37,834 bases of DNA, taken from the NCBI GenBank assembly GCA_027334165.1, contig DAHWXM010000004.1, positions 1 to 37,834 of the forward strand, written 5' to 3'. A program made the translations under genes and the position numbers. The stretch is from Microcaldota archaeon. Lineage in GTDB: Archaea > Micrarchaeota > Micrarchaeia > Micrarchaeales > CABMGC01. The notes beneath the pieces were generated by a model. It did not search any database and was not told where the DNA came from. It saw nothing but the letters and a program-made list of their open reading frames with translations. Every line of letters begins with the position of its first letter. Position 1 is the stretch's first letter. Shown here piece after piece: positions 8,434 through 31,583 of this stretch.

Positions 8434-10351
8434 GTTTGCTCCCCCGCGTGCTCTTGCGCCTACCCGAACGCGACGATTTTCTTCTTCTGGTAATAATCAG
8501 GTAAGCGTAAAAAGCCGCGAGCGCCACTGTCAGTGCCACCAGCTCATCCACCGGGGTGATGCCGTGCACGATGCGGTACAACGTGACGTTCCCGCACGTC
8601 GGTGTGTAGCTGTACACAAATGCCACCTGCTTTATTGCAGAGAGGTTTTCGCTTCCGCACGAGGAAAGGTTGTAAACGCTTATCGCCTCTGAGAATGGGG
8701 TGCCCGCCGAGGAGAACACGGAGAACGGGCTCTTGTACCCGTTGTTTATGGTCAGGTTGTTGAATGTGACCCCCTGCGTGTCACGTATGTCTATGCCGAA
8801 GTCCCCGGAGGCTCCGGGAGTGAGGTTAAGGTTGTTTACCGTTATCCCGCTGGAGTTGACGATCCTCACACCGTTGCCATGTATTCTGCAGTCGTTGAGC
8901 GTAACGTCACTGGAATTCTCTATGAGTATTCCGGTAACTGTGTCGTTTATTCTCCCATTGTCGCAGTTTATCGTTATGCCGCTGCCACTTATCACAACGC
9001 CAACGCTGCAGGCATTGTTGACCAACTGTGGCAGCGCGGCCTGCGCTATCGGAAGCAGTCTGTGTACCATGTTGTAAGTTCCCGGCGAGCTTACCCTAAT
9101 GTAGCTCATGGGCACGCTGAGGTCGTTTGCGAGCGCGCAGTATCCCAATCCCCTGCTGAACGACGGCGTGGTTGAGTCCTCCACGAATCTACCAAGTCCC
9201 GGTATCGTGCCTGGAAGCATCATTATCGAGGAATTTATCCCGACAGGCATGCGCTGGGTATAATTTACATAGTATATCATTGTGCCATTCTGCCCCGAAT
9301 CCGGAGCGCTGCCTGGGAACGAAAAAGCCCTGTAAAGTATTGAGTGCGCCCCTACTCCATCGGACGGGTTTAGCACGAACTCGGTCGGGTTGTACCTGTA
9401 GAGGTACGCCGTGAAGTTCCATCCCGCGTCCTCAGGAGGCACCGCGACAAGCCACCTTATGGTCATGTTCTGCGTCCCATTGTCCGGAAGGATGTTGAAG
9501 TTGAAGCTGGGGTACACCGGCTGTATGTAGAACGGGGTGAGGTTCATGTTTTCGGTCACGTTAAGCGTGAACGTCACCAGCTGGTCGAATCCGATGAACG
9601 AGTAGTCTATCTCATAGGGGTTGTAGTCCACCCTGCCGGACCTCGTGAGCGTGTACTGCGGCAGTAGGAAGGTCTTGCGCCCGACTATCTTTCCGTATGG
9701 CAGCCTCTCGGTGTAGTTGCCCCATATCTGGCTCTCGTTTATGTTGTACGCCCCGAATGGGATGCTCTGCTGGAAGGTCGAGAACCTGGCCGTGAAGTTG
9801 TTGAAGAACTCTCCCATCTGCAGCTCGGTGTTGTTGCTGCTGAACGACCCGTTCATCGTCGGGAATATGTAGGAGAATCCTGCAACCCTCTGTCCGAACA
9901 CGCCGGTAGTGTTGGATCCGTATGGTTCGAAGACCCTCACCGTTAAGTAGTGCGCCACGGTGATGTTGGAGCTGTTGTACCTGAAGCGCGGCGTAAACAC
10001 CGGACGGTTTGTGCCGACTACATAAAGGCTGGAGTCGTTGCCCATGACTACCACAGGTCCGTCGATGCTGCAGTTGACTATCCTATCTGCCACGTCCCTG
10101 CTGCCGACCACTATCGTGTAGTTACCGTCAAACCCGCCTGCCCCTGTGCACACCAATGTCGCGTTGCTCACTTCTTTTGAGAAAACCAGCGTACCGTGAT
10201 TGCACTCTGTCCCGTTCAGATAAGTGGAGGTATTGCTAGATCCTACGGTAAAGCTGCACCCCGCCCCGTGCACCTGTCCCGACAGTGCGAGAAGCACAAC
10301 CGCAGCTGCAAACATCATGCCAATGTAATGTGTACCGTGCGTGATCCGCAT
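8420..10351 (-). CDS. Large surface protein with parallel beta-helix region and C-terminal anchor
   Basis: The protein has 643 residues. I start it at ATG 10351 (MRITHGTHYIG), not the longer frame, because a TATA-like box lies 26 bases upstream and a signal peptide (about residues 10-32, ending VHGAG) follows at once. The long middle is rich in NxS/T sequons and aromatic residues. Near residues 430-560, repeated turns such as NSSDVTLNDCRIHGNG and NSSGITVNNLNL are the right-handed parallel beta-helix (NosD/pectate-lyase-like) pattern. The end has a transmembrane helix (VALTVALAAFYAYLII) and a very basic cytoplasmic tail. It is the first gene of the operon with the glycosyltransferases, which may glycosylate it. 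It is probably a cell-envelope protein; no enzymatic motif was seen. Confidence 0.75.
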   Translation of the reverse strand: MRITHGTHYIGMMFAAAVVLLALSGQVHGAGCSFTVGSSNTSTYLNGTECNHGTLVFSKEVSNATLVCTGAGGFDGNYTIVVGSRDVADRIVNCSIDGPVVVMGNDSSLYVVGTNRPVFTPRFRYNSSNITVAHYLTVRVFEPYGSNTTGVFGQRVAGFSYIFPTMNGSFSSNNTELQMGEFFNNFTARFSTFQQSIPFGAYNINESQIWGNYTERLPYGKIVGRKTFLLPQYTLTRSGRVDYNPYEIDYSFIGFDQLVTFTLNVTENMNLTPFYIQPVYPSFNFNILPDNGTQNMTIRWLVAVPPEDAGWNFTAYLYRYNPTEFVLNPSDGVGAHSILYRAFSFPGSAPDSGQNGTMIYYVNYTQRMPVGINSSIMMLPGTIPGLGRFVEDSTTPSFSRGLGYCALANDLSVPMSYIRVSSPGTYNMVHRLLPIAQAALPQLVNNACSVGVVISGSGITINCDNGRINDTVTGILIENSSDVTLNDCRIHGNGVRIVNSSGITVNNLNLTPGASGDFGIDIRDTQGVTFNNLTINNGYKSPFSVFSSAGTPFSEAISVYNLSSCGSENLSAIKQVAFVYSYTPTCGNVTLYRIVHGITPVDELVALTVALAAFYAYLIITRRRKSSRSGRRKSTRGSKHGTG

Positions 10352-10372
10352 CGCATATTCTTGCTCAAGAAA

Positions 10373-10381
10373 GGTTAAAAG
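10373..10381 (-). promoter_or_regulatory. TATA-like box of the surface operon
   Basis: The minus strand reads CTTTTAACC, centred 26 bases before the ATG at 10351. It should drive the four genes 10351 to 3390. Confidence 0.55.
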
Positions 10382-10484
10382 CGTTTTCCGACTCCTTAGT
10401 GCGATGGGCCACGGCAACAGCGTGCCGATTTGCAAACGTATTAATATTTTCGGTGCCAGCTATAATTCACACAAGGTACTTAGA

Positions 10485-11702
10485 ATGGCACTCTTATCTC
10501 GCGCAAGCAAGTACGCAGTCAATCCGATACAGGAGGAAGACGAGGTCGCCATGCGGCTCATTCGCTCCGGAAAGAAGGTCATCCAGATAAATAGGGGAGA
10601 CCCGCCTTCCTACTTCAAAACCCCGAAATACATGATAGATGCATTCGTAAGGGCGCTCAGGGAAAACCACACTGGCTACGCGAACCCGCTCGGCATTACC
10701 GAACTCCGCGAGGCAATATCTGACAGGTATCGGAGGCTCTACGGCACGGACGCGGGCACGGACAAGATAACAGTGACGCAGGGGGTCAGCGAGGCGCTGA
10801 TATTCCTAAATTCGATGCTCCTCGATCATGGCGATTCCGCGGTCATATTCAAGCCGTTTTATACCCAGTATCTGCCCGACATGCAGTTCTACGGCGGCAA
10901 GCCCATAGTAGAGAGCTACGAGGAGCGCCTCGGGTGGAACATAGACACTGACTCACTCTCAAGGCGTCTAAGGTCAGGGGCGAATTCCAACCGCATCAAG
11001 TACATGCTCATAACGAATCCAAACAACCCCACAGGCACGGTGCTCTCAAGGAAAGTGCTGGAGGAACTAGTCGATCTGGCCAACGAGCATGGGATCGTGC
11101 TGGTGAGCGATGAAATATACGACGAGATCGTGTACAACGGGGCAAAATTCACAAGCGTTGCCGAACTAGCGAAGGGGGTCCCGCACGTGATCATCGGGGG
11201 CGCGTCCAAGATCCTCGACGCGACCGGGTTCAGGATAGGTTTCATGATGGTTCCAGGAGAGGACAGGGCGTCAGTGCAGATAAACGGGGCGATAAAGAAT
11301 CTCGCAAGGGTGCGTCTTTCCGCAAACACCCCTGCTCAGTACGCAGTTGCCGAAGGGTTACGCAACAGCGCAGAACACAAGAAGGCAATAGGTTCCATGG
11401 TGAAGAGCATATCCGAGCGCGTAAACTTCGCCTCAAAACTTATAAATGAAAGCGGATATATGCATACGGTAGTGCCTAACGGCGCGTTCTACCTCTTCCC
11501 ACGGCTTCATATTGGCGAGCTCAAGATAAAGGACGACAGGGAGTTTGTCGACAAACTCTTGAAGGAGGAATACGTACAGCTCACCCGCGGCTCCGGATTC
11601 GGGGCAAGGAACTACGTGCGTCTTGTTGCGCTCCCTCCAAAGGAGGTGCTCGCATCTGCGATAGAGAAGATGGAGAGGTTCTGCAGGCGCCATTCACGCT
11701 GA
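10485..11702 (+). CDS. PLP-dependent class I/II aminotransferase
   Basis: The 405-residue protein is a fold type I aminotransferase of the aspartate/aromatic/alanine group. Motifs are NPNNPTGTVLS (the PLP-binding Asn region), SDEIYDEIVY (the Asp that pairs with the pyridine N and the Tyr), and GASKILDATGFRIGF, where Lys242 should form the Schiff base and the later Arg binds phosphate. Near the C-terminus RGSGFG... supplies the carboxylate-binding Arg region. The start at 10485 is chosen because the family begins near MALLSRASKYAVNP; upstream in-frame ATGs would overlap the divergent surface operon. AGGT lies 8 bases before the ATG and TATAATT about 21 bases before. Substrate specificity cannot be read. 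Confidence 0.9.
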   Translation: MALLSRASKYAVNPIQEEDEVAMRLIRSGKKVIQINRGDPPSYFKTPKYMIDAFVRALRENHTGYANPLGITELREAISDRYRRLYGTDAGTDKITVTQGVSEALIFLNSMLLDHGDSAVIFKPFYTQYLPDMQFYGGKPIVESYEERLGWNIDTDSLSRRLRSGANSNRIKYMLITNPNNPTGTVLSRKVLEELVDLANEHGIVLVSDEIYDEIVYNGAKFTSVAELAKGVPHVIIGGASKILDATGFRIGFMMVPGEDRASVQINGAIKNLARVRLSANTPAQYAVAEGLRNSAEHKKAIGSMVKSISERVNFASKLINESGYMHTVVPNGAFYLFPRLHIGELKIKDDREFVDKLLKEEYVQLTRGSGFGARNYVRLVALPPKEVLASAIEKMERFCRRHSR

Positions 11703-11706
11703 AACT

Positions 11707-11777
11707 GGAGGCATAGTCTATTGGTAGGACGTCACCCTTACACGGTGAAGAGCTGGGTTCGATTCCCTGTGCCTCCA
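11707..11777 (+). tRNA. tRNA-Val (anticodon UAC)
   Basis: A cloverleaf can be drawn: acceptor GGAGGCA/TGCCTCC with discriminator A73, D arm GTCT-ATTGGTA-GGAC, anticodon stem TCACC/GGTGA with loop CTTACAC (anticodon TAC), and T arm CTGGG-TTCGATT-CCCTG with one T-T mismatch. No CCA is encoded and no intron is seen. The gene ends 5 bp after the start of a genomic island: its last 15 bases plus one are repeated downstream, so it is the integration target. Confidence 0.93.
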
Positions 11778-11778
11778 A
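11763..11778 (+). repeat. Attachment-like direct repeat, copy 1 (inside tRNA-Val 3' end)
   Basis: TTCCCTGTGCCTCCAA covers the T-loop end, the T stem and the acceptor 3' strand. The same 16 bases occur at 14260-14275, and a shorter version at 15744-15758. This is the classic footprint of tRNA-targeted site-specific integration. Confidence 0.8.
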
Positions 11779-11779
11779 C

Positions 11780-11795
11780 CGACGACAAATCGTCG
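11780..11795. repeat. Inverted repeat next to the tRNA attachment site
   Basis: CGACGA-CAAA-TCGTCG forms a 6-bp stem with a 4-base loop two bases after the tRNA. GACAAA is repeated three times in 11784-11809. It could be a recombinase arm site or a transcription terminator for the tRNA. Confidence 0.45.
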
Positions 11796-11828
11796 ACAAA
11801 ATGACAAATCTCTCCATAAACGAAAGGT

Positions 11829-11837
11829 CTATATATC
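11829..11837 (+). promoter_or_regulatory. TATA-like box of the island operon
   Basis: CTATATATC lies about 40 bases before the ATG at 11874. With a transcription start about 26 bases on, it leaves a short leader containing the Shine-Dalgarno GGGAGGG at 11858-11864. Confidence 0.45.
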
Positions 11838-11873
11838 AGAAAAATCGCATAATCACTGGGAGGGTAATAGTTT

Positions 11874-12773
11874 ATGGGTAGAGCTACAGCAGTGAAAATT
11901 AATTCTGAAATATTGCCAAATAAGGAAGACATATGTGCAGTTGCGCGAGGCGCAACAAATAACTTAATAGCCCCTATTGAAAATATCAAAGTCTTACTTC
12001 TTGTTGGTGGGAAAGGCACTCGCCTTTCTTCGGTTTCTGGTGATATATCTAAAGGATTGATAACCATAGATCAAGACGGTAAAATCTCTGGTACGGAGCA
12101 TTCAAGTATGATTCTTAAAAATTTAGAACTTAATGACGTAGTGCTTCTTGTTAGACACAAATCAGATCAATATATTGAATTTGCAGAAAAACACGGATAC
12201 GCTATTTTACATCAAAATGAAGAATCTGGTACCGGTGGGGCTTTAGAAGAAGCAATCACTGAATTTGGTGCAGACAAGCAATATTTAGTCATGGCGACTG
12301 ACACCTATCTATATGCAACTGACGTTGCAAGGCTACTAAGTGCGCATTTAATAGGTAATGTAACTTGGGGAGTATCTATCCGCAATCCAGACCTTGATAT
12401 GGATTCGTATTATGGCCTAGTTCTAGACTCACAGAACAATGTGATAGGTGATGTAAAACAACATTGGTGGCACAATTACAGTGTTGATCAAATGCAACTT
12501 GTAACCAAAGGCGCAGTACAGATTGTTGATCCAATGCTCTATCTCCATAGCGTAAAAGTTTTTAAAAGACTAGCCGGAAATCCCTCTGCAATAGATCTCT
12601 ATTGGGACATTATGCCGCTAATGGAAGAGCAAAACAGAAGACGAATAAATAAGGGACAGAACTCTGTTGTTAAAGGTGTGATATTTGATCATGATATAAT
12701 AGACTATGGCACTCCAGAGCGGCTTGCAATTACAAGAGCTAGGTACGATATAGCCAGTACAAAGAGAGATTAA
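11874..12773 (+). CDS. Sugar-phosphate nucleotidyltransferase-like protein
   Basis: The 299-residue protein has the NDP-sugar pyrophosphorylase (NTP_transferase) fold signature. LLVGGKGTRLS at about residues 42-52 is the nucleotide-binding G-G-x-G-T-R-L loop, SKGLITI stands at the usual PKxL position, and ATDTYLY (Asp143) is the metal-binding Asp segment. About 35 extra N-terminal residues precede the Rossmann start. The start is supported by GGGAGGG ending 9 bases upstream. It is followed after one base by the Nudix-like gene (TAA-G-ATG), so the two are one transcription unit. Base composition and codons are clearly AT-richer than the flanking chromosome, and it lies between copies of the tRNA repeat, so it was probably acquired. 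Substrate unknown. Confidence 0.7.
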   Translation: MGRATAVKINSEILPNKEDICAVARGATNNLIAPIENIKVLLLVGGKGTRLSSVSGDISKGLITIDQDGKISGTEHSSMILKNLELNDVVLLVRHKSDQYIEFAEKHGYAILHQNEESGTGGALEEAITEFGADKQYLVMATDTYLYATDVARLLSAHLIGNVTWGVSIRNPDLDMDSYYGLVLDSQNNVIGDVKQHWWHNYSVDQMQLVTKGAVQIVDPMLYLHSVKVFKRLAGNPSAIDLYWDIMPLMEEQNRRRINKGQNSVVKGVIFDHDIIDYGTPERLAITRARYDIASTKRD

Positions 12774-12774
12774 G

Positions 12775-13500
12775 ATGGCTCAAATTTTTCCAATATTCAA
12801 TCCAATAACCCAGGAACATATCGGTTACAAAGAACGTAGTTTAGTCCATACAAATGGGGATTGGCACAGAGCTATTCAGGCAAATCTGATAAGGAAAAAC
12901 AATACGGGCTCATTTGATATACTTATACAAAAGCGTTCTAACTATGTAGATATTGGTGCTGGTAAATTTGACCAAAGTCTTGCAACTCAGATGACTGATC
13001 TGGATGATTTAGATGAATTAAAGACTTTGCAACGTGGATTATTATTGGAATTAACTGTAGTTACCTATCAGGCTACCAGATTAAATAGCGAATCGCATAT
13101 AATCAAAACATACGAAGAACATCCTGAGACATTAAATCGTGAATTATTGTCTCTATTTATTGTGGTAACTAACAGGGATGAACAAATAACATCTGCAACG
13201 CCTAAAATAACAGAGCTATTCTGGATGTCTTGGGAGAATTTTCTTAAATTCTTTGCTAAACGAAAGAATGAATTTACCAAAACAGCGCAGTTCTATTTTG
13301 GAGATCCTAATCTATTGCAACAGATAGAAGAATTGAGTTTTAGTATACTTTCCAGCGTTTCATCAATTGGAACTTATGTTGGGTACGAAAAAGCAACTGC
13401 ACAAACATTGTTACGCGTAGATAAATGGCCCGACGTCCCTAAAACCTATTGCGGAGATATTTCTAGCACCTTGTTAGAAGCTGGAGAACTGAGTAATTGA
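12775..13500 (+). CDS. Degenerate Nudix-like protein
   Basis: The 241-residue protein resembles the Nudix/IPP-isomerase-like fold: GDWHRAIQANLI and DILIQKRS at residues 28-55 match the usual strand pair before the Nudix box, and YVDIGAGKFDQSLA takes the place of the K-W-D-x-S-x-G-G segment. The box itself (about residues 64-95) has lost the signature. The expected R-E-x-x-E-E run reads QRGLLLELT, so metal binding is doubtful. The C-terminal 110 residues are helical without recognised motifs. It is cotranscribed with the nucleotidyltransferase and shares its AT-rich composition. It may be a non-catalytic sensor or partner; this is inference and family assignment is moderate. Confidence 0.55.
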   Translation: MAQIFPIFNPITQEHIGYKERSLVHTNGDWHRAIQANLIRKNNTGSFDILIQKRSNYVDIGAGKFDQSLATQMTDLDDLDELKTLQRGLLLELTVVTYQATRLNSESHIIKTYEEHPETLNRELLSLFIVVTNRDEQITSATPKITELFWMSWENFLKFFAKRKNEFTKTAQFYFGDPNLLQQIEELSFSILSSVSSIGTYVGYEKATAQTLLRVDKWPDVPKTYCGDISSTLLEAGELSN

Positions 13501-13585
13501 GAATTTCAACCCTGTAGGAATAAAATCTTAAATGTTCTTTCTGAATATTACTTGATATATACTAACCAATATAGAGTTCGCTTAT

Positions 13586-14107
13586 ATGAACACTTTCAAA
13601 CCTCCAACATACAAATATTGCCCCATGTGTGGAAAAGGGCTCACAGAAATTAAAGTTAACGGTGAGGCTTATCAGGCATGTTCGGATAGAACTGCATGTA
13701 AGTGGATACGCTGGGAGCATACTCCTATTACAGTGGCAGTTATAATCAGAGACCTTAACAATCCAGAAAGAATACTTCTTGTAAAACGCAACAACGAGCC
13801 TTTCAAGGGACTATGGTCTCTTCCTGCGGGATTTGCAGAGTACGGAGAGATGCCCAGCGAGGCAGCCAAGCGCGAGCTTAAGGAAGAAGTAGGTCTGTCT
13901 GCAAGTCATTTGAAGCTAATAGGTCAATATTTAGAGTCTTCCCATCCCAAAACTTTCTCGATACTTAATGTATTTGCAGCAGAAGGGATAACTGGAAATG
14001 CGTCGCCATCAGATGATGCAGAAGATCTGGCCTATTATTCTTGGAAATCACTTCCTAAGATGGCATTTGCAGGCCAAGTGCTAGCAATAGACGATTTCTT
14101 TAAATAA
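13586..14107 (+). CDS. Nudix hydrolase with N-terminal zinc ribbon
   Basis: The 173-residue protein has a treble-Cys start, CPMCGK and ACSDRTAC (Cys12, 15, 32, 38), typical of the zinc ribbon in NADH-pyrophosphatase-like Nudix proteins. A complete Nudix box follows at residues 82-104 (G-x5-E-x7-RELKEEVGL), so it should hydrolyse a nucleoside diphosphate linked to another group using Mg2+. GLWSLPAG precedes the box as usual. A TATA-like GATATATAC is centred about 28 bases before the ATG, so it has its own leaderless promoter. It sits inside the tRNA-flanked island and is less AT-biased than the two genes before it. Confidence 0.88.
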   Translation: MNTFKPPTYKYCPMCGKGLTEIKVNGEAYQACSDRTACKWIRWEHTPITVAVIIRDLNNPERILLVKRNNEPFKGLWSLPAGFAEYGEMPSEAAKRELKEEVGLSASHLKLIGQYLESSHPKTFSILNVFAAEGITGNASPSDDAEDLAYYSWKSLPKMAFAGQVLAIDDFFK

Positions 14108-14247
14108 CTGGCCACACCCTGAGTACAGAACAACTAACCAACATATTATACGTTATGTCAGTCATCTCAAGAAAAGGATAAAATTCACTGTAAAAAAGTA
14201 CGTAAACAATATTCAATTATATTGCTTAATATTATCTCGGAAACCCC

Positions 14248-14547
14248 CTAGACATTGGCTTCCCTGTGCCTCCAATGATTTTTGTCGTCGTAGAAGCTGA
14301 GAACCGATAAAACACATCCTTTGCGGGATGCAGTGATTGCATGAACGCAGAGGAAGCCCACACCGTTTACGGGTGGGAGGATGTCACAAATGGATTCTAC
14401 CATCAGACCTATTATTATACCAGTAGAGCCTATGCAAGAACCAACCAGAAATCCTTTATTTTTTCCTCCGGTATCCATTGCATGAATCATTAGCCTCGCA
14501 AAGAATCCTATATAAACGATGGCTATTATCCAATAGTATAACGCCAC
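14248..14547 (-). CDS. Small membrane protein, start uncertain, possibly a gene remnant
   Basis: The frame encodes two or three hydrophobic helices (YWIIAIVYIGFFARLMIHAM and GFLVGSCIGSTGIIIGLMV are the clearest). GTG at 14547 is the only standard start, but the frame stays open to 14640 and its upstream part is also strongly membrane-like (GGFIAGLFVTFVVFDVIAFA), so a start has been lost or is non-standard. The last residues (HWRHREANV) are encoded by the complement of attachment repeat copy 2, as if integration replaced the original 3' end. I do not recognise a family. Confidence 0.4.
   Translation of the reverse strand: MALYYWIIAIVYIGFFARLMIHAMDTGGKNKGFLVGSCIGSTGIIIGLMVESICDILPPVNGVGFLCVHAITASRKGCVLSVLSFYDDKNHWRHREANV
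14260..14275 (+). repeat. Attachment-like direct repeat, copy 2
   Basis: TTCCCTGTGCCTCCAA is identical to the tRNA-Val 3' end at 11763-11778. Preceding bases (ATTGGC) differ from the tRNA but recur before copy 3. It lies inside the 3' end of the small membrane ORF at 14248. Confidence 0.8.
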
Positions 14548-14690
14548 TCCTAATGCAAAAGCAATTACGTCAAAAACAACAAACGTGACGAAAAGACCTG
14601 CAATGAACCCCCCATAAGATCTTGGCCATTTATTATCACTCTATCAAATTCTGTACATGTACTGTATGTTCGTCTGTTGTCTTAGGCTGA

Positions 14691-15593
14691 CTAGGTAGAA
14701 ATGATATATTGTGAGAGTAGCTGGTTACATAAGTAAGTGGCAAATGGCTTCTGGTCTCCTTTATCCGCTGCTTCTATTGCGTTGTAGTATTGCTCTTTGT
14801 TTGAAACCTCAATTATTACTGGAGGGAACTTATTTCTAAGCAGTATCCAGTTCATCAGAAGCCTGGCAGTTCTCCCATTGCCACCTGTAAATGGGTGTAT
14901 TTTAACGAACTTATTGTGAAGCATGGTAGCAAGTTCTACCGGATGCAATCTTTTCTTCTCTATATAGAATTCAGCAAACAGGTCTTCAAGCAACCCTGCC
15001 ACAATTGCTGGCTTTGGTGGAACGTGCCCCGAACCCGCTATCCTCACTTCGCTGTCCCTGTAATTACCTTGTATCCTGCAAGAAGTATTTTTGGTTATTT
15101 CGTACTGCATTTTGCATATGAATGCCTTGTTCAACCTGCGTTTGTAGGATTTGACAAAATCCCATGCGTCAACAGCATTAAGGGCCTCAATAACATCATC
15201 TGCACGTGTGCCTTCTGGTGCTATCCTATCACTAAGCACTAAAGCAGTCTGTCTAAGAGTTAGGCGATTACCTTCTATAGCATTTGTGTTATATGTATAC
15301 CGTACCAGAAAATCTTTAGGCAACACATTCGTAGCGGTTTTGCGAAATACCGTTATCGACGCACTAAGATCATCGACTTTTTCTACTAGCTCTTTTGGTA
15401 GCCATCTGGTCTGATATTGCTCCATCGTTCTTTTTTCTAGCTCTACAAAGTGTTTTTGCAGTTCGACTTGCTTTGGAATCTCTCGGCCTAAGAAAATCCT
15501 AAGTTTTTTTACGTTAGTCGGAGTCACTCTGATATTCTTGACTAGATAATAGTAGGAATGCCCCCCATGTTTCTGTCTCTCTATAAACGACAT
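14691..15593 (-). CDS. Fic domain protein (predicted AMP-transferase)
   Basis: The 300-residue protein has the Fic active-site motif HPFTGGNGRTAR at residues 233-244. His233 is the catalytic base, and the Asn/Gly/Arg bind the nucleotide phosphates. An N-terminal inhibitory motif TNAIEG (residues 103-108, consensus S/T-x3-E-G/N) makes it a class II, self-inhibited Fic enzyme; Glu107 would block ATP. The first 70 residues are a helical region shared with archaeal Fic proteins. It has its own AT-rich promoter (TTTAAATAT about 25 bases before the ATG) and no antitoxin partner gene is visible. It lies between attachment-like copies 2 and 3, suggesting it is accessory. The target protein is unknown. 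Confidence 0.9.
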   Translation of the reverse strand: MSFIERQKHGGHSYYYLVKNIRVTPTNVKKLRIFLGREIPKQVELQKHFVELEKRTMEQYQTRWLPKELVEKVDDLSASITVFRKTATNVLPKDFLVRYTYNTNAIEGNRLTLRQTALVLSDRIAPEGTRADDVIEALNAVDAWDFVKSYKRRLNKAFICKMQYEITKNTSCRIQGNYRDSEVRIAGSGHVPPKPAIVAGLLEDLFAEFYIEKKRLHPVELATMLHNKFVKIHPFTGGNGRTARLLMNWILLRNKFPPVIIEVSNKEQYYNAIEAADKGDQKPFATYLCNQLLSQYIIST

Positions 15594-15916
15594 AATATGT
15601 CTACATTATATAGATATTTAAATATTGTGGACATAATGACTACATTTATACTATTATCTAATTATGTAGCCATATAAATATGGCCTTCGTATATGACCTT
15701 TTATTTAAATGATTTAAACTGGCAATCTGTCCAGATTGGCAAACTTTCTGTGCCTCCATCTGCATCTGTCTATATCCGATGTCGTTTGAACTACCTCTAT
15801 TTTACGGAATTTATCTGGCATTGCTTCCTGTTTCCATTGGTCCTGCAAAAACGCCCATTGCTATGGTAATTTAAACTAGTGGCTACAAGACATAATCACA
15901 ATACAATGTGATATAA
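15594..15916. other. AT-rich intergenic region with repeats and two promoters
   Basis: No gene is seen here. It holds the Fic promoter (about 15615-15625), repeated GACATAAT (15589-15596 and 15630-15637) with inverted relatives CTACATTAT (15601-15609) and ATTATGTAG, an inverted repeat CAATCTG-TC-CAGATTG (15723-15738), attachment-like copy 3, and AATTTAAAC (15869-15877) before the cold shock gene. Confidence 0.55.
15744..15758 (+). repeat. Attachment-like repeat, copy 3 (imperfect)
   Basis: It matches the tRNA-Val 3' end in 12 of 15 bases, with CTGTGCCTCCA exact. ATTGGC just upstream is shared with copy 2, and a palindromic inverted repeat (15723-15738) lies 5 bases before it. It is probably an older, decayed attachment site bounding the Fic segment. 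Confidence 0.5.
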
Positions 15917-16108
15917 ATGAAAGGAAAAGTAAAGATGTTTAATGCGGAGCGCGGATTCGGCTTCATAACCGGAGAAGATGGGAAGGACACGTACTTCCAC
16001 AAAACCGCAGTCGAAGGCGGAGCGGCACTTGCCGTAGGCGATTCCGTAGAGTACGAAGTCGAAGCGGGAGAACGTGGAACGCGCGCAAAGAACGTAAAGA
16101 AGATATAA
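15917..16108 (+). CDS. Cold shock domain protein (CspA family)
   Basis: The 63-residue protein is a single OB-fold cold shock domain. RGFGFIT (residues 12-18) is RNP-1 and TYFHKT (25-30) is RNP-2, the aromatic patch that binds single-stranded RNA or DNA. Length is normal for the family. Csp proteins are common in bacteria but patchy in archaea. GTGAT lies a few bases before the ATG, and a TATA-like AATTTAAAC about 45 bases before it, so the mRNA should have a short leader. The gene is monocistronic and sits just outside the last attachment-like repeat. Confidence 0.93.
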   Translation: MKGKVKMFNAERGFGFITGEDGKDTYFHKTAVEGGAALAVGDSVEYEVEAGERGTRAKNVKKI

Positions 16109-22542: not shown

Positions 22543-24312
22543 CTATCTGTAGTGGCTCGACGGCACCACTCTCGCCTTCTTGAACCTCCTGTTGTATTCC
22601 GCACTAAGCCGCTCGAGCGTTATCGTACCTACGTAAGTGCCGTCTTTCAGCACCGGCGCCCACACGGAATCGTTCTTCGCCATAACCATGAACGCCTTCC
22701 TTGCGCTGTCTCCATATCCTACGTGTGCTATTTTCGCAAGTCTCAGTTTTGCTATGCTCCCTCCACTCCTTGCCCTCTCCAGGTCCTCCATCGATATCCC
22801 CCCGAGAAGGCGTCTGACGTGCTCCCCGCTCACTACCGGGAGACGGTGCACTCCCAGTTCCATCATCTGCCTTTTCGCATTCCCCGGAGAAGACGTCGTC
22901 CGCACCGATATGTCCTCCAGTATGAGATCGCTTGTCTTTATGGACTCGAGCATCGGGGTGCTGTACTCGTTCATGTGCACCGGCGAGTCTCTCCTGGTCG
23001 GTACCTGTGACTTGTATATGGTCCTGTCCCCAGATACGAGATAGGATAATGCCACGGCGACCATCGCTGCTGGCAGGAGCTGCATGCTGCCGGTCATCTC
23101 CGTGACCATGAGCAGAACCGATATCGGGACCTTTCCCGCGGCACCCATAAACGCGAGTGCGCCGACTATGACAAAAGGTGCTATCGACGTTGCGATTCCC
23201 GGACTTACCGAATGAAACAGCAACCCGAACATAAGCCCTATGGATGCACCTATGAAAATTCCCGGTGCGAAGACACCTCCGGATCCGCCAGAGCTTATGC
23301 TGAATGACGTTGCGAATATCTTTGCGAATGGCATCAGCACTATGATCAGGATGAGCGGGATGCCATACGTTGGAAGATTCTGCGTGGTGGCGTTGAAGAA
23401 TATCTGCACCCACCCGTATCCCACGCCCATGACCTCTGGAAAGAGCATGGCTATTGCAGCAACTACAATGGCGCCAAGGAACGGTTTGATGTGATTCTTT
23501 ATCCTCAGTTTCCTAAATGCCTCCTGCACTCTGTAGAACACGCCCACATAGAAAATGACAAACAGTCCGGTCACTATCCCCAAAACCGCATACAGCGGCA
23601 GGTTGAGCGGATCGAAGGCCTGCAGGTAATATCCGAATATCGGCTGGAAGCCCACTATGGACCCGAAGATCGAGTAGCCGACTGCGCTTGCAACTACTGC
23701 CGGAAAAAGCGCGCTCGTCTCAAAATCCCTCTTGTAAGGAACTTCCACCGCGAGCAGTGCTCCTCCTATGGGGGCCTTGAATATCGTGCCTATACCTGCC
23801 CCCGTGCCCACAAGAACCGCGATTCTCCTGTCTCTGCTGTCGAGCCGTAGCAGATCCGAAATGTACGCGCCTATTCCTGCGGCTATCTGCGCCGTAGGGC
23901 CTTCCCTCCCCGCGCTCCCTCCAGAGCCTATGGTGATGGCTGATGCCAGGGCCTTGATCAGGGGCACGCGCCTGCGTATCTTTCCGTCCTTGTTGTGGAA
24001 CGCGTCTATCATCGCATCCGTCCCATGCCCCTCCGCCTCCGGCGCAAACGTGTAGACGAGGAAGCCGGAGAGCAGTCCTCCAAGGAGCAGCGATATCGGC
24101 ACGAGCAGCATGTTGTCCTGTACGAACGGCTGCCCTCCCTCTCCTACAGATGACGGGAGCTGCGTGCCGGCAATGCCTCCGAGGAACAGGTCCTGCGCGT
24201 ACACTATGGCGTAATAGAAAAGCAGCGCGCCAACTCCCGCGGCAACGCCAATGAGTATTCCCAAGACAAGCCATTTCTTGAAGTATTCGAGATTCTTGAT
24301 TCTCAGGTTCAT
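22543..24312 (-). CDS. ClC-family chloride channel/antiporter with CBS domain pair
   Basis: The 589-residue protein has ClC signatures. GSGGSAGREGP (about 129-139) has gating Glu137, AVEVPY keeps a Glu near the proton-transfer position of antiporters, and GSGGVFAPGIFIGA (about 346-359) is the anion-pathway loop. About 17 helices span residues 15-440. The C-terminal 140 residues form two CBS motifs (around ISVRTTSS...HRLPVVSG and IAHVGYGDSARKAF...WAPVLKDG), which usually bind adenine nucleotides and regulate transport. The two Glu residues favour a Cl-/H+ antiporter. It is first in an operon with nagB. ATTATTAAAGG lies about 33 bases before the ATG. Confidence 0.92.
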   Translation of the reverse strand: MNLRIKNLEYFKKWLVLGILIGVAAGVGALLFYYAIVYAQDLFLGGIAGTQLPSSVGEGGQPFVQDNMLLVPISLLLGGLLSGFLVYTFAPEAEGHGTDAMIDAFHNKDGKIRRRVPLIKALASAITIGSGGSAGREGPTAQIAAGIGAYISDLLRLDSRDRRIAVLVGTGAGIGTIFKAPIGGALLAVEVPYKRDFETSALFPAVVASAVGYSIFGSIVGFQPIFGYYLQAFDPLNLPLYAVLGIVTGLFVIFYVGVFYRVQEAFRKLRIKNHIKPFLGAIVVAAIAMLFPEVMGVGYGWVQIFFNATTQNLPTYGIPLILIIVLMPFAKIFATSFSISSGGSGGVFAPGIFIGASIGLMFGLLFHSVSPGIATSIAPFVIVGALAFMGAAGKVPISVLLMVTEMTGSMQLLPAAMVAVALSYLVSGDRTIYKSQVPTRRDSPVHMNEYSTPMLESIKTSDLILEDISVRTTSSPGNAKRQMMELGVHRLPVVSGEHVRRLLGGISMEDLERARSGGSIAKLRLAKIAHVGYGDSARKAFMVMAKNDSVWAPVLKDGTYVGTITLERLSAEYNRRFKKARVVPSSHYR

Positions 24313-25373: not shown

Positions 25374-26012
25374 TCAGGCGCCGCCTTCCTGCGAAGACTT
25401 CGCTATCCTCTTCTTGACATGCTTGAGCGCCGAGAACGTGTCTCTGTCTATCTCCTCCAGGCGCATGCGGATGTACCTCTGCTGCGCCCTCATCCCGGGT
25501 ATGACCTTGTAATCGAGGGCGTTGACCCTCCTCTTCGTCTTGTCTATCTCCAGCACGAGCCTCTTCAATCCCTGCTCCCTCTGCGCTATCTCAATTATTG
25601 AATCCGTCGCCTGTCTGAACGTATCGTTGATGTCGTCAACCGCGAGGCTGCTGGAGAAGAAGAGCGGATCAGCAGCGACCTCCTGCCCCACCTTCTCTAT
25701 CTTAGGAATGCGTACGCCCATGATGTTCTTGACCCTTATCGAGACCGGCTTGGCCTCCTTGGCGCGCAAGGCCACCTCCTCAAGTTCAAAGTTTCCGACG
25801 TAGGTCGATGCGGTCTTGACCATCTTGTACGAGTCTTGTACGAGCTCATTGAGCCTTGCCCGACTCTCTCCCGACTGCTTGAGCATCTTGAGGAACTCGA
25901 GCACCAGGACCTCCCTCTTCCTCTTAAGGATGCCGTGACCCTTCCTGGCCACCGCTACCCTCTTCTTCAGATTTATCAGGTTGATCCTCGTTGGGTTGAG
26001 CCTCGCCATCAT
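25374..26012 (-). CDS. atpD: A-type ATP synthase subunit D (central stalk)
   Basis: The 212-residue protein starts [20 protein letters not shown], the typical subunit D beginning, followed by long coiled-coil helices, and near the end [23 protein letters not shown], the conserved C-terminal helix. It is the rotor shaft that couples the A3B3 head to the membrane ring. Its ATG overlaps the B stop as ATGA (4 bases), so it is translationally coupled. It is the last gene of the synthase operon proper. Confidence 0.95.
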
Positions 26013-27469
26013 TTCGACCTTTTCCTCTCCTCCTTGCCGCTGTGTGCAGGAGCTTCCTCCGCCTTCTTGGCCCCATGCCCCTCCTCCTTGCCCTGTCGCT
26101 TGTAGTACTTGGCTACGTGGTCCTTCTTTATCCTTGTCAGCTCTCCCTCCTGCATCATGGAGAGAAGCTCCCAGCCTATGTTAAGAGTGTCCTCTATGCT
26201 TCTTCTCTCGTAGAATCCCTGCCTGAGGAACCGGTTCTCGAATTCCTCCCCGAACTTTAGGTACAGCTTGTCGCTGTCGCTCAGCGCCTCAGCACCCACT
26301 ATTGCGCTAAGGCTCTTCACATCAAGGGATTTTGAGTAGAAGGTGTAGAGCTGGTTCGCAACCCCACTGTGGTCCTCCCTGGTCTTACCGCTCCCTATCC
26401 CGTTGTTCATGAGCCTCGAGAGCGATCCTATCGGCTGTATCGGCGGATAGATGCCTTTGTTCACCAGATCCCTGCTCAGGTATATCTGCCCCTCGGTTAT
26501 GTATCCGGTGAGGTCTGGTATCGGATGAGTGACGTCGTCGCTAGGCATGGTTACCACGTCCAGCTGTGTTATGCTCCCCTTCTTTCCCTTCACTATTCCG
26601 GCGCGCTCGTACAGGCTGGCGAGGTCCGTGTACATGTAACCCGGATAACCTCTTCTTCCCGGCACCTCCTCCCTCGCGCTTGCCAGCTCCCTGAGTGCCT
26701 CCGCGTAGTTCGTCATGTCGTTAAGTATCACCAGGACGTGCATCCCCTTCTCGTACGCAAGGTACTCCGCTGTCGTCAGTGCTATCCTTGGTGTGAGTAT
26801 CCTCTCTATGCTCGGGTCATCCGCGAGATTGATGAACGCAACTGTCCTCTTCAGCGCGCCAGTCTTCCTGAACTCGTCTATGAAGTACGCCGAATCATCG
26901 TAGTTGATTCCTATCCCTGCAAATACTATGGCGAAGCCCTCTGTGCTGTTCTTGACGTTGGCCTGCCTGGTTATCTGCGCGGTGAGCTCGTTGTGCGGAA
27001 GTCCCGAAGCCGAGAAGAGGGGAAGCTTCTGCCCCCTGACCAGCGTGTCCAGGCCGTCTATCGCGGATATGCCAGTCTCAATGAAATCGCTTGGTTTCTC
27101 CCTGGATGCCGGGTTGATCGGCGAGCCGTTTATGTCCATCCTCTTGTCCGGCACTACCTCGGCGCCGCCGTCCCTGGGTCTGCCCTGTCCGTCGAATATC
27201 CTGCCCAGCATTGTCTCGCTGACCCCGATCTCGAACGTCTCCCCGAGGAAACTTACGGTGGTCTTGTCCACGCTTATGCCGTCGGTAGGGCCGAATACCT
27301 GCACCACCGCGTGCTTGTCGCTCGTCTCGAGGACTTGGCCAAGCCGCGTCTCTCCATTGCCGAGTTTTATCCTTACCACTTCATTGTACTTAGCGTTCTT
27401 GACCTTATCTACCACGACAAGCGGCCCCGCAACGCTTCCTATTGTGCTATACTCTATCTCGAACTTCAT
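26009..27469 (-). CDS. atpB: A-type ATP synthase subunit B
   Basis: The 486-residue protein is the regulatory, non-catalytic nucleotide-binding subunit alternating with A in the head. It starts [21 protein letters not shown] chose ATG 27469 because the longer frame would overlap the end of subunit A with a very basic, non-family sequence. The segment [20 protein letters not shown] replaces a Walker A loop, as expected for B, and [18 protein letters not shown]-like [11 protein letters not shown] lies near residues 375-385. The C-terminal 25 residues are Lys/Glu-rich and beyond the family core. It lies 13 bases after the A gene. Confidence 0.96.
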
Positions 27470-27482
27470 AACATCACGCCAT

Positions 27483-29252
27483 TTACTCCTGCGCCTCCTG
27501 GTACTCCTTTCTGAGCTCCAGGAATTCCGCATCCATCTCATCAAGCATCTTCTTCTCGTGCCTCTCCACTTCTACCTCCTTCACTTCCTTCATCCTGGCG
27601 ACCTGCTCTCTCGCCTTCATCTTCAGGATCCTTTCCGTGGCGACCTGGTGGGACAGGGCCTCCTCCGCCTTCTTCCTGAAGTGGAGTATCGCCCTAAGCA
27701 TCATGTCCTGCTTGCGCAGGCTGGTGCTCGCGTCTGTCTCGTCGTACGCATTCTGCCTAAGGAAATCCTCCCTCAGCATTCTGCCTACCTCCAGCACGAG
27801 CTTCTCGTTGTCCGGGAGCGCATCCGCTCCGACCAGCTGCACTATGTCCTTCAGCTCGGCTTCTCTCTGGAGCACCTTTGTCGCCTCGTTCCTATTCGCG
27901 ACGAACTCCTCGCCTATGCTCTTCACGTACCACTCCTTGAGCGCGTCCAGGTACAGCGAGTAGCTTGTAAGCCAGTTGACGGAAGGGAAGTGCCTGGATC
28001 CTGCCAGTGCGGCATCGAGCGCCCAGAAGGTCTTAACCACCCTCAGCGTTCCCTGCGACACAGGTTCGGACAGGTCCCCTCCCGCAGGAGACACCGCGCC
28101 TATTATGGTTATCGAACCCATTCTGCCATTGAGCGATTCCACCTTTCCGCTTCTTTCGTAGTACTCAGCCAGCCTCTTCGGCAGATAAGCCGGGTATCCT
28201 TCCTCTCCGGGCATCTCCTCAAGCCTTGCGGATATCTCCCTCATGGCCTCCGCCCATCTCGACGTCGAGTCCGCCATGATTGCGACGCTGTATCCCATAT
28301 CCCTGAAGTACTCGGCTATCGTTATTCCGGTGTAAATGCTGGCCTCCCTAGCCGCCACCGGCATGTTGCTCGTGTTGGCTATGAGCACGGTGCGCTCCAT
28401 GAGCGGCCTCCTCGTCTTTGGGTCTACGAGCTCCGGAAACTCCACGAGCACGTCGGTCATCTCGTTGCCCCTCTCTCCGCATCCCACGTAAATAACTATG
28501 TCGGCGTCAGAGTACTTCGCGATCTGCTGCTGTATGACCGTCTTCCCGCTTCCGAACGGCCCCGGCACCGCCGCCGTCCCTCCCTTCGCTACAGGAAAGA
28601 ATGCGTCGAGAACCCTCTGCCCCGTGACCAGCGGCTCGCTGGACCTGAACTTGTGCCTGAAAGGCGAGCCCCTCCTGACGCTCCTCTTCTGGACCATGGT
28701 TATCGGAATCTGCTTGCCGTTCCTCTCCACCTTCGCGACCGCCTGGTCGAGCGTGAACGTTCCGTCCTTTAGCCCGGATATCCTGCCCTCTATCCCGCTG
28801 GGTATCATGATGTAGTGCTTGATGTTCTCCGTCTCCTGCACGTGCCCGATTATCTCGCCCGGTCTGACGTGTGCGCCGTTCTTTATCCCCTTCTCTGCGA
28901 AGAACTTCCATTTTCTCTTCCTGTCTATTGCCTCTGCGGTGAGTCCCTTGCCGATGAACGCGCCGCTCTTTGACCTGAGAACCTCCAGCGGCCTCTGTAT
29001 TCCGTCATATATGTTGCTCAGTATTCCGGGACCGAGCTCCACTGAGAGCGGCATGCCTGTCGAGGTCACCGGCTCGCCAGGCCCCATGCCGGTTGTGTCC
29101 TCGTAAACCTGTATCACCGCTCTCTCTCCCCTGAGCTGTATGATCTCGCCTATGAGGTTCTGCTTTCCTACCTTTACAACGTCATACATATTGCTTCCGA
29201 GCATGTCATTTGCCACGACTAGCGGGCCTGATATTCTCTCTATGATACCCAT
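27483..29252 (-). CDS. atpA: A-type ATP synthase catalytic subunit A
   Basis: The 589-residue catalytic subunit starts [14 protein letters not shown]. The A-subunit-specific Walker A loop GPFGSGKT is at residues 231-238 (Lys237), with GERGNEM and [15 protein letters not shown] following. The non-homologous insert typical of V/A-type A subunits covers about residues 115-190 ([12 protein letters not shown] and neighbours). No intein interrupts the P-loop, although archaeal A subunits are frequent intein hosts. AAGGTGAATCAATG gives a clear Shine-Dalgarno seven bases before the ATG. A long antisense frame covering A and B is a codon-bias shadow. Confidence 0.97.
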
Positions 29253-29256
29253 TGAT

Positions 29257-29261
29257 TCACC
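29257..29261 (-). promoter_or_regulatory. Ribosome binding site of atpA
   Basis: The minus strand has GGTGA four bases before the ATG at 29252. The same GGTGA pattern sets the start of subunit K. Confidence 0.6.
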
Positions 29262-29272
29262 TTAAACACCAT

Positions 29273-29623
29273 TCATTTTCCCATTTTTGTTATGTCTATG
29301 CCTATGGCCCTGAGTATGAGGCTTCTCAGCGTGTCCTCCTCGGCCATGCTCTCTCCGGGCTCAGGAACCTCGACCACTAGCGGCAGTATGCTCTCAGACA
29401 TCATGTCCTGGAGCCTGCGGTCCCTTATCTGTCTTCTCACGGAAGAACTGACTATGACTATGCCGACATCGCTCCTGGACAGGAGTTCCCTCATCCTGGA
29501 TTCGGTTTCCTTTGGATCAGCCGCGTTGTAAGACTCCGACACGCCAGCAAGCTTGAAGCCTAGCGTGAGCAGCTCGTTGCCCACCATGACTATCTTGTAT
29601 TCCTTCTCTACTCGTTCTTCCAT
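29273..29623 (-). CDS. atpF: A-type ATP synthase subunit F
   Basis: The 116-residue protein has the Rossmann-like subunit F pattern: YKIVMVGNELLTLGFKLAGV near the start, then VGIVIVSSSVRRQI, and PLVVEVPEPGE near the end. It binds subunit D in the rotor and regulates activity. It overlaps the C gene by 16 bases and ends 20 bases before A. The N-terminal eight residues (EERVEKEY) are charged and slightly longer than usual. Confidence 0.92.
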   Translation of the reverse strand: MEERVEKEYKIVMVGNELLTLGFKLAGVSESYNAADPKETESRMRELLSRSDVGIVIVSSSVRRQIRDRRLQDMMSESILPLVVEVPEPGESMAEEDTLRSLILRAIGIDITKMGK

Positions 29624-30684
29624 ACTATCAGCCTTTCCGTCTCCTCCTTGGTGAGCCCGTAAGCCCTGCTGTGTATCAGTATCCTCAGCGTGAATATCTC
29701 TATCTCCTTCATGTAAGCGTAAGCGAGTATCGTGCCGAAGGAGAGTATGCTGTGCCTGAGCATGCGCATGCTCTCGTTGAACACGGCGTTCCGCATCCCG
29801 ATCTCGAACAGGAGCAACTGCTTCCTCCTGCTGTTCCTGTACGCATCTAGTGCCGGTTTCATGTCGTACGCCTTTATCTGCGCCACGAATCCCTCCACGT
29901 CTCCTGCTCCGTTGTACATCTGCTCGAGCTCTCCCGGCCGCATCCTGCCGTTGCCTATGATGTGTCCGCTCACGTCCGCAAACTTCATGCCAGCCCTCTT
30001 GGCCTTTACCAGCAGTAGCAGGTTCCTCACGTCTATCTCCATCTTCAGCACTAGAGCAGATTCGCTGTGCACCGCCCGCAGGCCCAGCACCATCCCTCCG
30101 AGGTCCTTGTAGTAGCTCCTGTCGATCTCCGCCATCGCTTCGGCGACGCTTCCGCTTTTCTTCAGCGCGTCAGCAGCGCCTCTGAGGATCCTAGCGTAGG
30201 GCGAGTTGATCGCGAAGCGGTTCAGCATGGTCTCCACAGAGTCCTCGCGCATCGCCTCCTTAATCGCCGCGGCGTTGTACCTGCCATAGTCTATGACGTA
30301 ACTGGCGATGGATTCGTATCCGAGCCCGCGGTCCTTTGCTCCGAGCGCGAGCTTCACGTTGTTCAAGTCCCATCTTCCGACGACACCCCTTACGGTCTTC
30401 TTATCGGAGGAAGGCGATATCTGCACGAGCTTACCCGTGTTCCTGGCCAGGTTCCTGCTGAGCGCGAAGTCTATCAGTTCCTGCTTTATCGCGAGCCCTC
30501 CAAACCTCTCCAAATCCTCCCGGTAGTCTCCTTGGAAGAGAATGGCCATCATGCTGCTCACATCGCGTGCGTTCGCTATCTCAGACATGGCTCTCCTGGT
30601 CATGAACCTGGACTCCATAGCCTTGACCCTCGCACTGGAGTATCCGTAATGCACAGCCGCCTCTCCTCCCGACAACAAATTCAT
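29608..30684 (-). CDS. atpC: A-type ATP synthase subunit C
   Basis: The 358-residue, mainly helical protein follows the subunit C/d (V-ATPase AC39-like) pattern: YGYSSARVKAMESRFM at the start, LKMEIDVRNLLLLVKAKRAGM in the middle and EIEIFTLRILIHSRAYGLTKEE near the end. It is the socket joining the central stalk to the proteolipid ring. Its ATG overlaps the E stop as ATGA. Confidence 0.94.
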   Translation of the reverse strand: MNLLSGGEAAVHYGYSSARVKAMESRFMTRRAMSEIANARDVSSMMAILFQGDYREDLERFGGLAIKQELIDFALSRNLARNTGKLVQISPSSDKKTVRGVVGRWDLNNVKLALGAKDRGLGYESIASYVIDYGRYNAAAIKEAMREDSVETMLNRFAINSPYARILRGAADALKKSGSVAEAMAEIDRSYYKDLGGMVLGLRAVHSESALVLKMEIDVRNLLLLVKAKRAGMKFADVSGHIIGNGRMRPGELEQMYNGAGDVEGFVAQIKAYDMKPALDAYRNSRRKQLLLFEIGMRNAVFNESMRMLRHSILSFGTILAYAYMKEIEIFTLRILIHSRAYGLTKEETERLIVWKNE

Positions 30685-31316
30685 CTCCTCTTGGGTTTTG
30701 ACTTTCGCCTGTTCTTCACCGCCCTCTTCACTGGCATGCGCTTAGACGCCGCACCCTTCCCGCCGAAGAGCTCCTCCGCCACCGCCCTCCTTATCGTGTC
30801 GATGTTTTTCTCCACGGCCCCGGATACGGTCGCGTTGAGCGATATCTTCCTGTCAGGCGTGCAGAACACGAACCCGTCGATGTCTCCGGTTTCAACCTTC
30901 ACGTTCCTGCCCTTGGCGATGTCTGAGTTTCTCTTTCCGGATATAACGACAACTTCCTCGGAATCCGAGATCCTCCTGAACTCCTTCATGCCCGCCTCGA
31001 AGATCCTCTCAAGGTCTTTCTTCTCCACACTCCTGGCTATCTCGTCCCTCACCTCCTTCATGTACTTCGAGACTACCTCTCCCTGTGCAGCGACGATAAG
31101 CGTGTTCCTCTCGGTCTCGATTCCTGCCTCGGCCTCCTTCCAGAGGCGAGCCGCCTCCTTCTCCGCGTCCTCCTTGGCCTGCCTGAGCGCGGCCCCGGCC
31201 TTCTTCTCTGCATCAGCGACTATTCTAGCTGCTTCCCTCGATGCATCTGATTCGATTGCCTTGGCCTTGGCATCGGCGTCGGAAACGATGCTCCTCTTTA
31301 TGACGTCTAGGGACAT
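30681..31316 (-). CDS. atpE: A-type ATP synthase subunit E (peripheral stalk)
   Basis: The 211-residue protein has a long charged N-terminal helix (AKAKAIESDASREAARIVA onward, Ala/Lys/Glu heptads to about residue 70) that pairs with subunit H, then a globular domain with VVVISGKRNSDI and ISLNATVSGAVE. It is the stator. The C-terminal 25 residues are very basic (KRAVKNRRKSKPKRR), an unusual extension. GAGGG lies a few bases before the ATG. TATATAAAG at the end of the K gene, about 17 bases before this ATG, could be an internal promoter or chance. Confidence 0.92.
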   Translation of the reverse strand: MSLDVIKRSIVSDADAKAKAIESDASREAARIVADAEKKAGAALRQAKEDAEKEAARLWKEAEAGIETERNTLIVAAQGEVVSKYMKEVRDEIARSVEKKDLERIFEAGMKEFRRISDSEEVVVISGKRNSDIAKGRNVKVETGDIDGFVFCTPDRKISLNATVSGAVEKNIDTIRRAVAEELFGGKGAASKRMPVKRAVKNRRKSKPKRR

Positions 31317-31328
31317 TTTACGCCCTCT

Positions 31329-31565: not shown

Positions 31566-31570
31566 TTGGT

Positions 31571-31575
31571 TCACC
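31571..31575 (-). promoter_or_regulatory. Ribosome binding site that decides the atpK start
   Basis: The minus strand reads GGTGA-ACCAA-ATG. It overlaps the alternative TTG/GTG codons upstream, which would lack any such site. Confidence 0.6.
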
Positions 31576-31583
31576 AATATTCT

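What the first reader, a model, noticed from the sequence alone, without database searches (positions are those of the whole stretch)
11763..14275. tRNA-Val-bounded genomic island with an exact 16-bp repeat and no visible integrase
TTCCCTGTGCCTCCAA at the tRNA 3' end recurs at 14260-14275. The DNA between is strikingly AT-rich against GC-richer neighbours and holds a nucleotidyltransferase, a degenerate Nudix and a Nudix gene. An inverted repeat with repeated GACAAA follows the tRNA directly. This is the signature of site-specific integration; the integrase has been lost or is supplied elsewhere.
Basis: seen in the sequence. Interest (0 to 1): 0.68.

Follow-up and report, generated by a model that had tools for sequence, protein, structure and literature searches.

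The report
Integrase-less gene cassettes stacked at tRNA-Val
In a family of tiny archaea (Micrarchaeota), one valine tRNA gene is a docking site where small, AT-rich, one-to-three-gene cassettes without an integrase gene of their own are inserted and sometimes stacked end to end; the window holds two of them, and they probably move with an integrase encoded on rarer elements.

Summary
The 16-bp repeat is exact and not chance. The AT-rich insert does not stop at 14275: it runs to 15758, where a third copy of an 11-bp core (CTGTGCCTCCA) sits 158 bp before a native cold-shock gene. So there are two tandem segments: 2.50 kb (nucleotidyltransferase, unknown, Nudix) and 1.48 kb (Fic). The host is a Candidatus Micrarchaeota MAG.

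Among 43 relatives with an intact core, 17 carry 23 further exact copies downstream of the tRNA, all in the same orientation; none occurs in reverse or upstream. Empty sites (tRNA then cold-shock gene) exist. Cassettes recur across genera: Fic is 76-83% identical where the adjacent aminotransferase is 51-58%. Shared DNA blocks begin or end at core copies, and cassette ends fall into recurring types. Three MAGs branch in assembly exactly at the tRNA 3' end.

No integrase lies in the window. Autonomous ~6-kb elements with a matching integrase occur at this tRNA in a few relatives; integrase clades largely track the target tRNA, and this clade was not found in the host genome (83% complete). Best reading: integrase-less cassettes, moved in trans or as composites, akin to CIMEs. 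Mobility is inferred, not shown.

The parts
11707..11777 (+). tRNA-Val(UAC), the attachment-site gene; downstream of an aspartate-type aminotransferase (10341-11702) in most relatives examined
   Evidence: ARAGORN; Rfam; conserved linkage
11763..11778 (+). core copy 1 (tRNA 3' end; TTCCCTGTGCCTCCAA; conserved core CTGTGCCTCCA)
11780..11808 (+). left-end motif of segment 1: CGACGACAAATCGTCGACAAAATGACAAA (inverted repeat plus three GACAAA)
   Evidence: sequence; CGACGACAAA unique per strand; enrichment
11874..12773 (+). nucleotidyltransferase (NTP_transferase), cargo of segment 1; no close relative in 79 family genomes
   Evidence: Pfam
12775..13500 (+). unknown 241-aa protein, cargo of segment 1
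13586..14107 (+). Nudix hydrolase, cargo of segment 1
   Evidence: Pfam (E 2.6e-20)
14260..14275 (+). core copy 2, boundary between the two segments
14281..14290 (-). left-end motif of segment 2 (TTTGTCGTCG, reverse complement of the motif at 11780)
14691..15593 (-). Fic/DOC protein, cargo of segment 2; 76-83% identical copies in several genera, mostly at the same tRNA
   Evidence: Pfam; PADLOC
15700..15747 (+). right end of segment 2, type A (TTTATTTAAATGATTTAAACTGGCAATCT...), shared with cassettes of other genomes
   Evidence: blastn
15748..15758 (+). core copy 3 (CTGTGCCTCCA), outer end of the island
15917..16108 (+). native cold-shock-type gene flanking the island; lies 80-236 bp after tRNA-Val at empty sites of relatives

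Best explanation
The region 11778-15758 is two tandem, integrase-less integrated segments at tRNA-Val(UAC). Each runs from one copy of the 11-bp tRNA core to the next, with a left-end signal just after the core (CGACGACAA-like, in some relatives followed by a mimic of the tRNA T-arm) and, in segment 2, a recurrent right-end sequence just before the next core. Inferred mechanism: a tyrosine integrase specific for tRNA-Val(UAC), encoded by rarer autonomous elements that use the same site, joins the core of a circular cassette to the core in the tRNA. This rebuilds the tRNA 3' end and pushes older cassettes downstream, and by the same chemistry can release cassettes singly or as composites. Shown: repeats, orientation bias, empty sites, cassette sharing across genera with boundaries at cores, existence of site-matched integrase elements. 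Inferred: excision, action in trans, the circular form and how the DNA passes between cells.
For: 43 loci with intact core: 17 hold 23 extra exact cores, all forward; 0 reverse in 275 kb and 0 upstream in 240 kb; about 0.05 expected for the 13 copies of the first 28 loci. GC falls from 48% before to 41% after the tRNA, paired p = 3e-6. Empty sites: tRNA to cold-shock gene 236 bp (L150) and 80 bp (L152, a second tRNA-Val of its genome); occupied sites end in a core or degraded core 62-158 bp before that gene (L257, L053, window). Fic 76-83% identical in five genomes where the aminotransferase is 51-58%, at tRNA-Val in G007, G076, G087 and L093. Shared blocks begin or end at cores, with recurring end types. 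Left-end motif enriched at first (9/28) and internal (7/20) junctions against 4/56 other tRNAs, p about 0.005 each, and after tRNAs followed by family A integrases 15/29, p = 7e-6. Autonomous elements at this tRNA with a family A integrase that keeps the catalytic residues and a repeat that reaches into the T-arm: G073 (5.9 kb) and G080 (6.5 kb). The four integrases found in tRNA-Val arrays form one clade, 87/91. Contigs overlap by exactly 127 bp at the tRNA 3' end in G005, G007, G080.
Against: No excised circle or reads were available. The host genome is 82.9% complete, so a cognate integrase could be in the missing part. The Val clade has long branches and modest support, and two of its members (G083, G033) lie in the opposite orientation. 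The left-end motif is absent or weak at most junctions (19/28 first junctions have 3 or more mismatches), and in family A elements it overlaps the integrase N-terminal codons. It was recognised on part of the same junctions that were later counted, so its p-values are optimistic. Segment 1 has no relatives in the family and its right end matches none of the recurring types.
Confidence: 0.72

Rival explanations
1. Dead remnants: the segments are internal-deletion derivatives of autonomous tRNA-Val elements that lost the integrase and are now fixed; nothing moves them.
For: Autonomous elements at the same tRNA exist; the left-end motif can be read as the start of a family A integrase gene; G004 carries an array-like AT-rich insert and has no detected integrase; some junctions are degraded.
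Against: The same integrase-less Fic cassette is 76-83% identical in several genera while the neighbouring host gene is 51-58%, and TA, AAA-ATPase and other cassettes recur at different array positions. Independent decay does not give this.
Confidence: 0.17
2. The cassettes spread by ordinary homologous recombination between tRNA-Val regions, not by site-specific recombination.
For: tRNA-Val and the aminotransferase 3' end are conserved flanks.
Against: The downstream flanks of relatives differ, host genes are only 50-58% identical, and the shared blocks begin or end at an 11-bp core within arrays.
Confidence: 0.04
3. A true integron or CALIN: cassettes carrying attC sites acted on by an integron integrase.
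For: Small cassettes of one to three genes in tandem, captured at one site, with no integrase inside.
Against: Single strands at five tested junctions do not fold better than shuffles (z -1.7 to +0.8). The integration site is a tRNA, and the site-associated integrases belong to a tRNA-linked Phage_integrase family.
Confidence: 0.04
4. Chance repeat beside a compositionally odd region.
For: A search allowing 3 mismatches finds two matches in 10 of 100 shuffles, but that is not the exact 16-mer.
Against: Exact 16-mer; 23 forward and 0 reverse core copies across 43 loci.
Confidence: 0.01

Closest known systems
ssrA-linked genomic islands of Dehalococcoides (PMC3146451), including 15 islands without an integration module, suggested to be cis-mobilizable elements (CIMEs)
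   Same: Tandem islands behind one tRNA-like gene, bounded by direct repeats of its 3' end; some with an integration module, others with none; integrase-less ones thought to move by accretion with neighbours.
   Different: There a serine recombinase, a 20-bp repeat and reductive dehalogenase cargo in a bacterium; here a tyrosine integrase family, an 11-bp core, cassettes mostly about 0.6-3.3 kb and TA/Fic/ATPase cargo in a DPANN archaeal family.
Integrated elements of Thaumarchaeota at tRNA 3' ends (PMC6563490)
   Same: Archaeal, tRNA 3'-distal att sites, short repeats (most shorter than 26 bp); the paper notes that tyrosine-recombinase elements can form arrays by re-using a site.
   Different: In the passages read these are larger elements; arrays of one-to-three-gene integrase-less cassettes with shared end types were not seen described there.
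Integrons and CALINs of Archaea (PMC9668308)
   Same: Tandem small gene cassettes; CALINs lack a local integrase.
   Different: Structure-folded attC sites and IntI; no folding signal was found here, and the dock is a tRNA gene. The paper does not mention Micrarchaeota (word search).
Tycheposons of Prochlorococcus (known to me from memory; the original paper is not in the library)
   Same: tRNA-linked, cargo-carrying elements using tyrosine recombinases.
   Different: Larger, different host and cargo; not compared by sequence here.

Membership tests
tRNA-site integrated element (tyrosine recombinase type) | Direct repeat of the tRNA 3' end at the far boundary | tested here: met
tRNA-site integrated element (tyrosine recombinase type) | Empty site in relatives | tested here: met
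   L150 and L152: tRNA then cold-shock gene at 236 and 80 bp; L152 is the second tRNA-Val locus of its genome
tRNA-site integrated element (tyrosine recombinase type) | Own integrase gene | tested here: not met
   No integrase found at this locus; the host's four lie elsewhere
Cis-mobilizable element (CIME) / accretion array | Flanked by att-like sites, lacks integrase and transfer genes | tested here: met
Cis-mobilizable element (CIME) / accretion array | Related integrase-bearing element uses the same site | tested here: met
   G073 and G080 family A elements at tRNA-Val(UAC)
Cis-mobilizable element (CIME) / accretion array | Excision or movement with a helper shown | not testable with these tools
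   needs reads, PCR or culture
Integron / CALIN | attC sites that fold as single strands | tested here: not met
   five junctions, DNA parameters; no attC covariance model was run
Integron / CALIN | IntI integrase | tested here: inconclusive
   Two Phage_integrase families found beside tRNAs; no IntI-specific model was run

The most novel reading that the evidence does not exclude
A tRNA-anchored, integron-like gene-capture platform of a DPANN family: very small cassettes with interchangeable end modules at double-stranded att sites are shuffled between species in trans by integrases whose specificity is set by the target tRNA, T-arm mimics in the cassette ends serving as extra integrase sites.
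Probability: 0.3. Interest if true: 0.7.

Novelty: new variant of a known kind. Interest (0 to 1): 0.52.

Why it matters
Micrarchaeota have genomes of about 1 Mb and are thought to depend on hosts; how they gain genes is poorly known. A family-wide dock that accepts one-to-three-gene cassettes (Fic, toxin-antitoxin, ATPases, methyltransferases), beside autonomous restriction-modification elements, would be a concrete gene-exchange route. The clade-to-tRNA match of the integrases makes target choice and helper dependence directly testable with purified protein and short DNA.

Tried and rejected
Viral origin: the Fic protein and the family A integrase have no relative in IMG/VR at this sensitivity, and exact TTCCCTGTGCCTCCA hits there show no cassette-type ends. 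Resident host integrases as the direct helper: those with a known target belong to Glu, Ala (family A) and Asn (family B) sites, and C19 groups with a Val(CAC)-adjacent integrase, so they are unlikely to be cognate, though cross-use is not excluded. Core-like sites elsewhere in the host: the exact 13-mer at C16 has no array beside it and one-mismatch counts equal the reversed-pattern control. Integron attC folding: no signal. Source of the nucleotidyltransferase/Nudix cassette: no close family relative, only weak phage hits, no plasmid hit for the unknown protein. Rfam: only the tRNA above threshold.

Full report
Check of the observation. The tRNA-Val(UAC) is at 11706-11777/8 and TTCCCTGTGCCTCCAA is exact at 11763-11778 and 14260-14275. 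The AT-rich DNA does not stop there. GC is 53.8% to the left, 38.2% for 11778-14274, 39.8% for 14275-15758 and 54.3% to the right, and a third copy of the core, CTGTGCCTCCA, lies at 15748-15758, 158 bp before a cold-shock-type gene. The inverted repeat after the tRNA is CGACGA-CAAA-TCGTCG, with GACAAA three times. The 10-mer CGACGACAAA occurs once per strand in the window, each time within 7 bp after a core copy.

Host. The window is contig C18 of an 816-kb, 82.9%-complete genome. Its nearest named relatives by the adjacent aminotransferase are Candidatus Micrarchaeota MAGs, for example JAJYOL010000002.1, 70% identical.

The site in relatives. The aminotransferase-tRNA-Val(UAC) pair is conserved, but what follows the tRNA is not. 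Of 43 loci with an intact core, 23 of the 41 with enough sequence turn AT-rich by my criterion, and 17 hold 23 further exact copies of CTGTGCCTCCA, all in the tRNA's orientation; none in reverse in 275 kb, none upstream in 240 kb. Several other loci are flat in GC with no extra copy. L150 and L152 have the same cold-shock gene 236 and 80 bp after the tRNA, while occupied loci end in a core 62 (L257) and 158 bp (window), or a degraded core about 75 bp (L053), before it.

Cassettes. Blast between arrays shows shared blocks that begin or end at core copies and two kinds of recurring ends: right ends of about 50-60 bp before the core (at least three types) and left ends after it (at least four). 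End types are combined differently: the Fic gene has one pair of ends in the window and another in G007. Fic is 82% identical in G007 and G025, 81% in G076, 83% in G087 (partial) and 76% in G006, where the aminotransferase is 55, 56, 53, 51 and 58%. Other cargo: ParE/RelE-type toxin-antitoxin pairs, AAA_14/DUF4143 and ATPase_2 proteins, methyltransferases, weak GNAT matches, HAD. PADLOC places the Fic near candidate defence family PDC-S04 and SoFic; this is resemblance only. L079 holds a tandem copy with a 54-bp repeat.

Integrases. The host has four tyrosine integrases, three of them 9-67 bp after tRNA-Ala, tRNA-Glu and tRNA-Asn, the fourth at a contig end. Across relatives two families (A about 300 aa, B about 400 aa) sit mostly just after many different tRNAs. 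In the family A tree, clades largely follow the target tRNA (Ala, Leu, two Glu groups, Arg/Lys), and the four found in tRNA-Val arrays (G073, G080, G083, G033) group at 87/91, the G073-G080 pair at 100/99; long branches call for caution. G073 and G080 are autonomous elements of 5.9 and 6.5 kb with DNA methylase genes (in G073 also a Tsp45I-type restriction enzyme), conserved R, H-x-x-R, H and Y residues, and a repeat that reaches into the tRNA T-arm. Their stop codons reported by the six-frame search are at or after the ORF end. In G080 two cassette-type cores follow the autonomous element. Family B integrases occur directly at this tRNA in G023 and G031, and a homologous ORF lies after tRNA-Val in L105, whose core differs.

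End signal. A CGACGACAA-like motif within 45 bp after the core is found (2 mismatches or fewer) at 9/28 first junctions, 7/20 internal junctions, 15/29 tRNAs followed by a family A integrase, and 4/56 other tRNAs. In family A elements it falls in the first integrase codons, so its conservation there may be partly coding. T-arm mimics (GGGTTCRATTCC-like) follow several left ends but none was found in the window with up to 3 mismatches.

Population signal. In G005, G007 and G080 two contigs overlap by exactly 127 bp ending at or within 5 bp of the tRNA 3' end, as expected where an assembly graph (k=127, my inference) branches because different sequences follow the same tRNA. Eight genomes have a contig end at this tRNA; a rough chance estimate is 3e-5, from rounded contig counts.

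Reading. Segment by segment the window fits two integrase-less integrated elements at one tRNA. The pattern matches what is called cis-mobilizable elements or accretion arrays; the nearest described case is the ssrA islands of Dehalococcoides, where 15 islands lack an integration module (PMC3146451). The archaeal variant differs in recombinase family, size of the cassettes and shared end types. No paper found in the held library describes it for Micrarchaeota, which is a limited search. Movement in trans, the circular form and the vehicle between cells are inferred.

Noticed in passing
window 14326-14388: GGGATGCAGTGATTGCATGAACGCAGAGGAAGCCCACACCGTTTACGGGTGGGAGGATGTCACA, nearly repeated in G031 (L141, 19031 minus). 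From memory it resembles an IS200/IS605 (TnpB) right end; no TnpB was found in the host genome and Rfam gave no hit.
   Followed up: partly
G000:C20:53439-60100 (L044): Classical element at tRNA-Glu in the same genome: family A integrase right after the tRNA, 30-bp repeat at +6693, cargo with an ATPase/OLD-like protein and a methylase-type restriction protein (read from sequence, no family search run).
   Followed up: partly
G000:C9:48658-48728: Second tRNA-Val (GAC) with core CTGTACCTCCA, uniform GC downstream, apparently unoccupied.
   Followed up: no
L222 (G076:C48): Fic cassette 18-29 bp after a tRNA-Val whose own 3' end differs (CTGTACTCCCA), with CTGTGCCTCCA inside the insert; possibly integration at an imperfect site.
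   Followed up: partly
L224 (G006:C21): Fic segment (75-76% identical) as an AT-rich island in 60% GC DNA with no tRNA detected nearby; possibly a secondary site.
   Followed up: partly
family A integrases, e.g. L162 and L161: The integrase reading frame overlaps or abuts the tRNA 3' end, so the first codons (YDDK) coincide with the end motif; integration may restore the gene start.
   Followed up: no
window 26012-33449: A/V-type ATP synthase genes on the minus strand; also a CLC chloride channel at 22543-24312.
   Followed up: no
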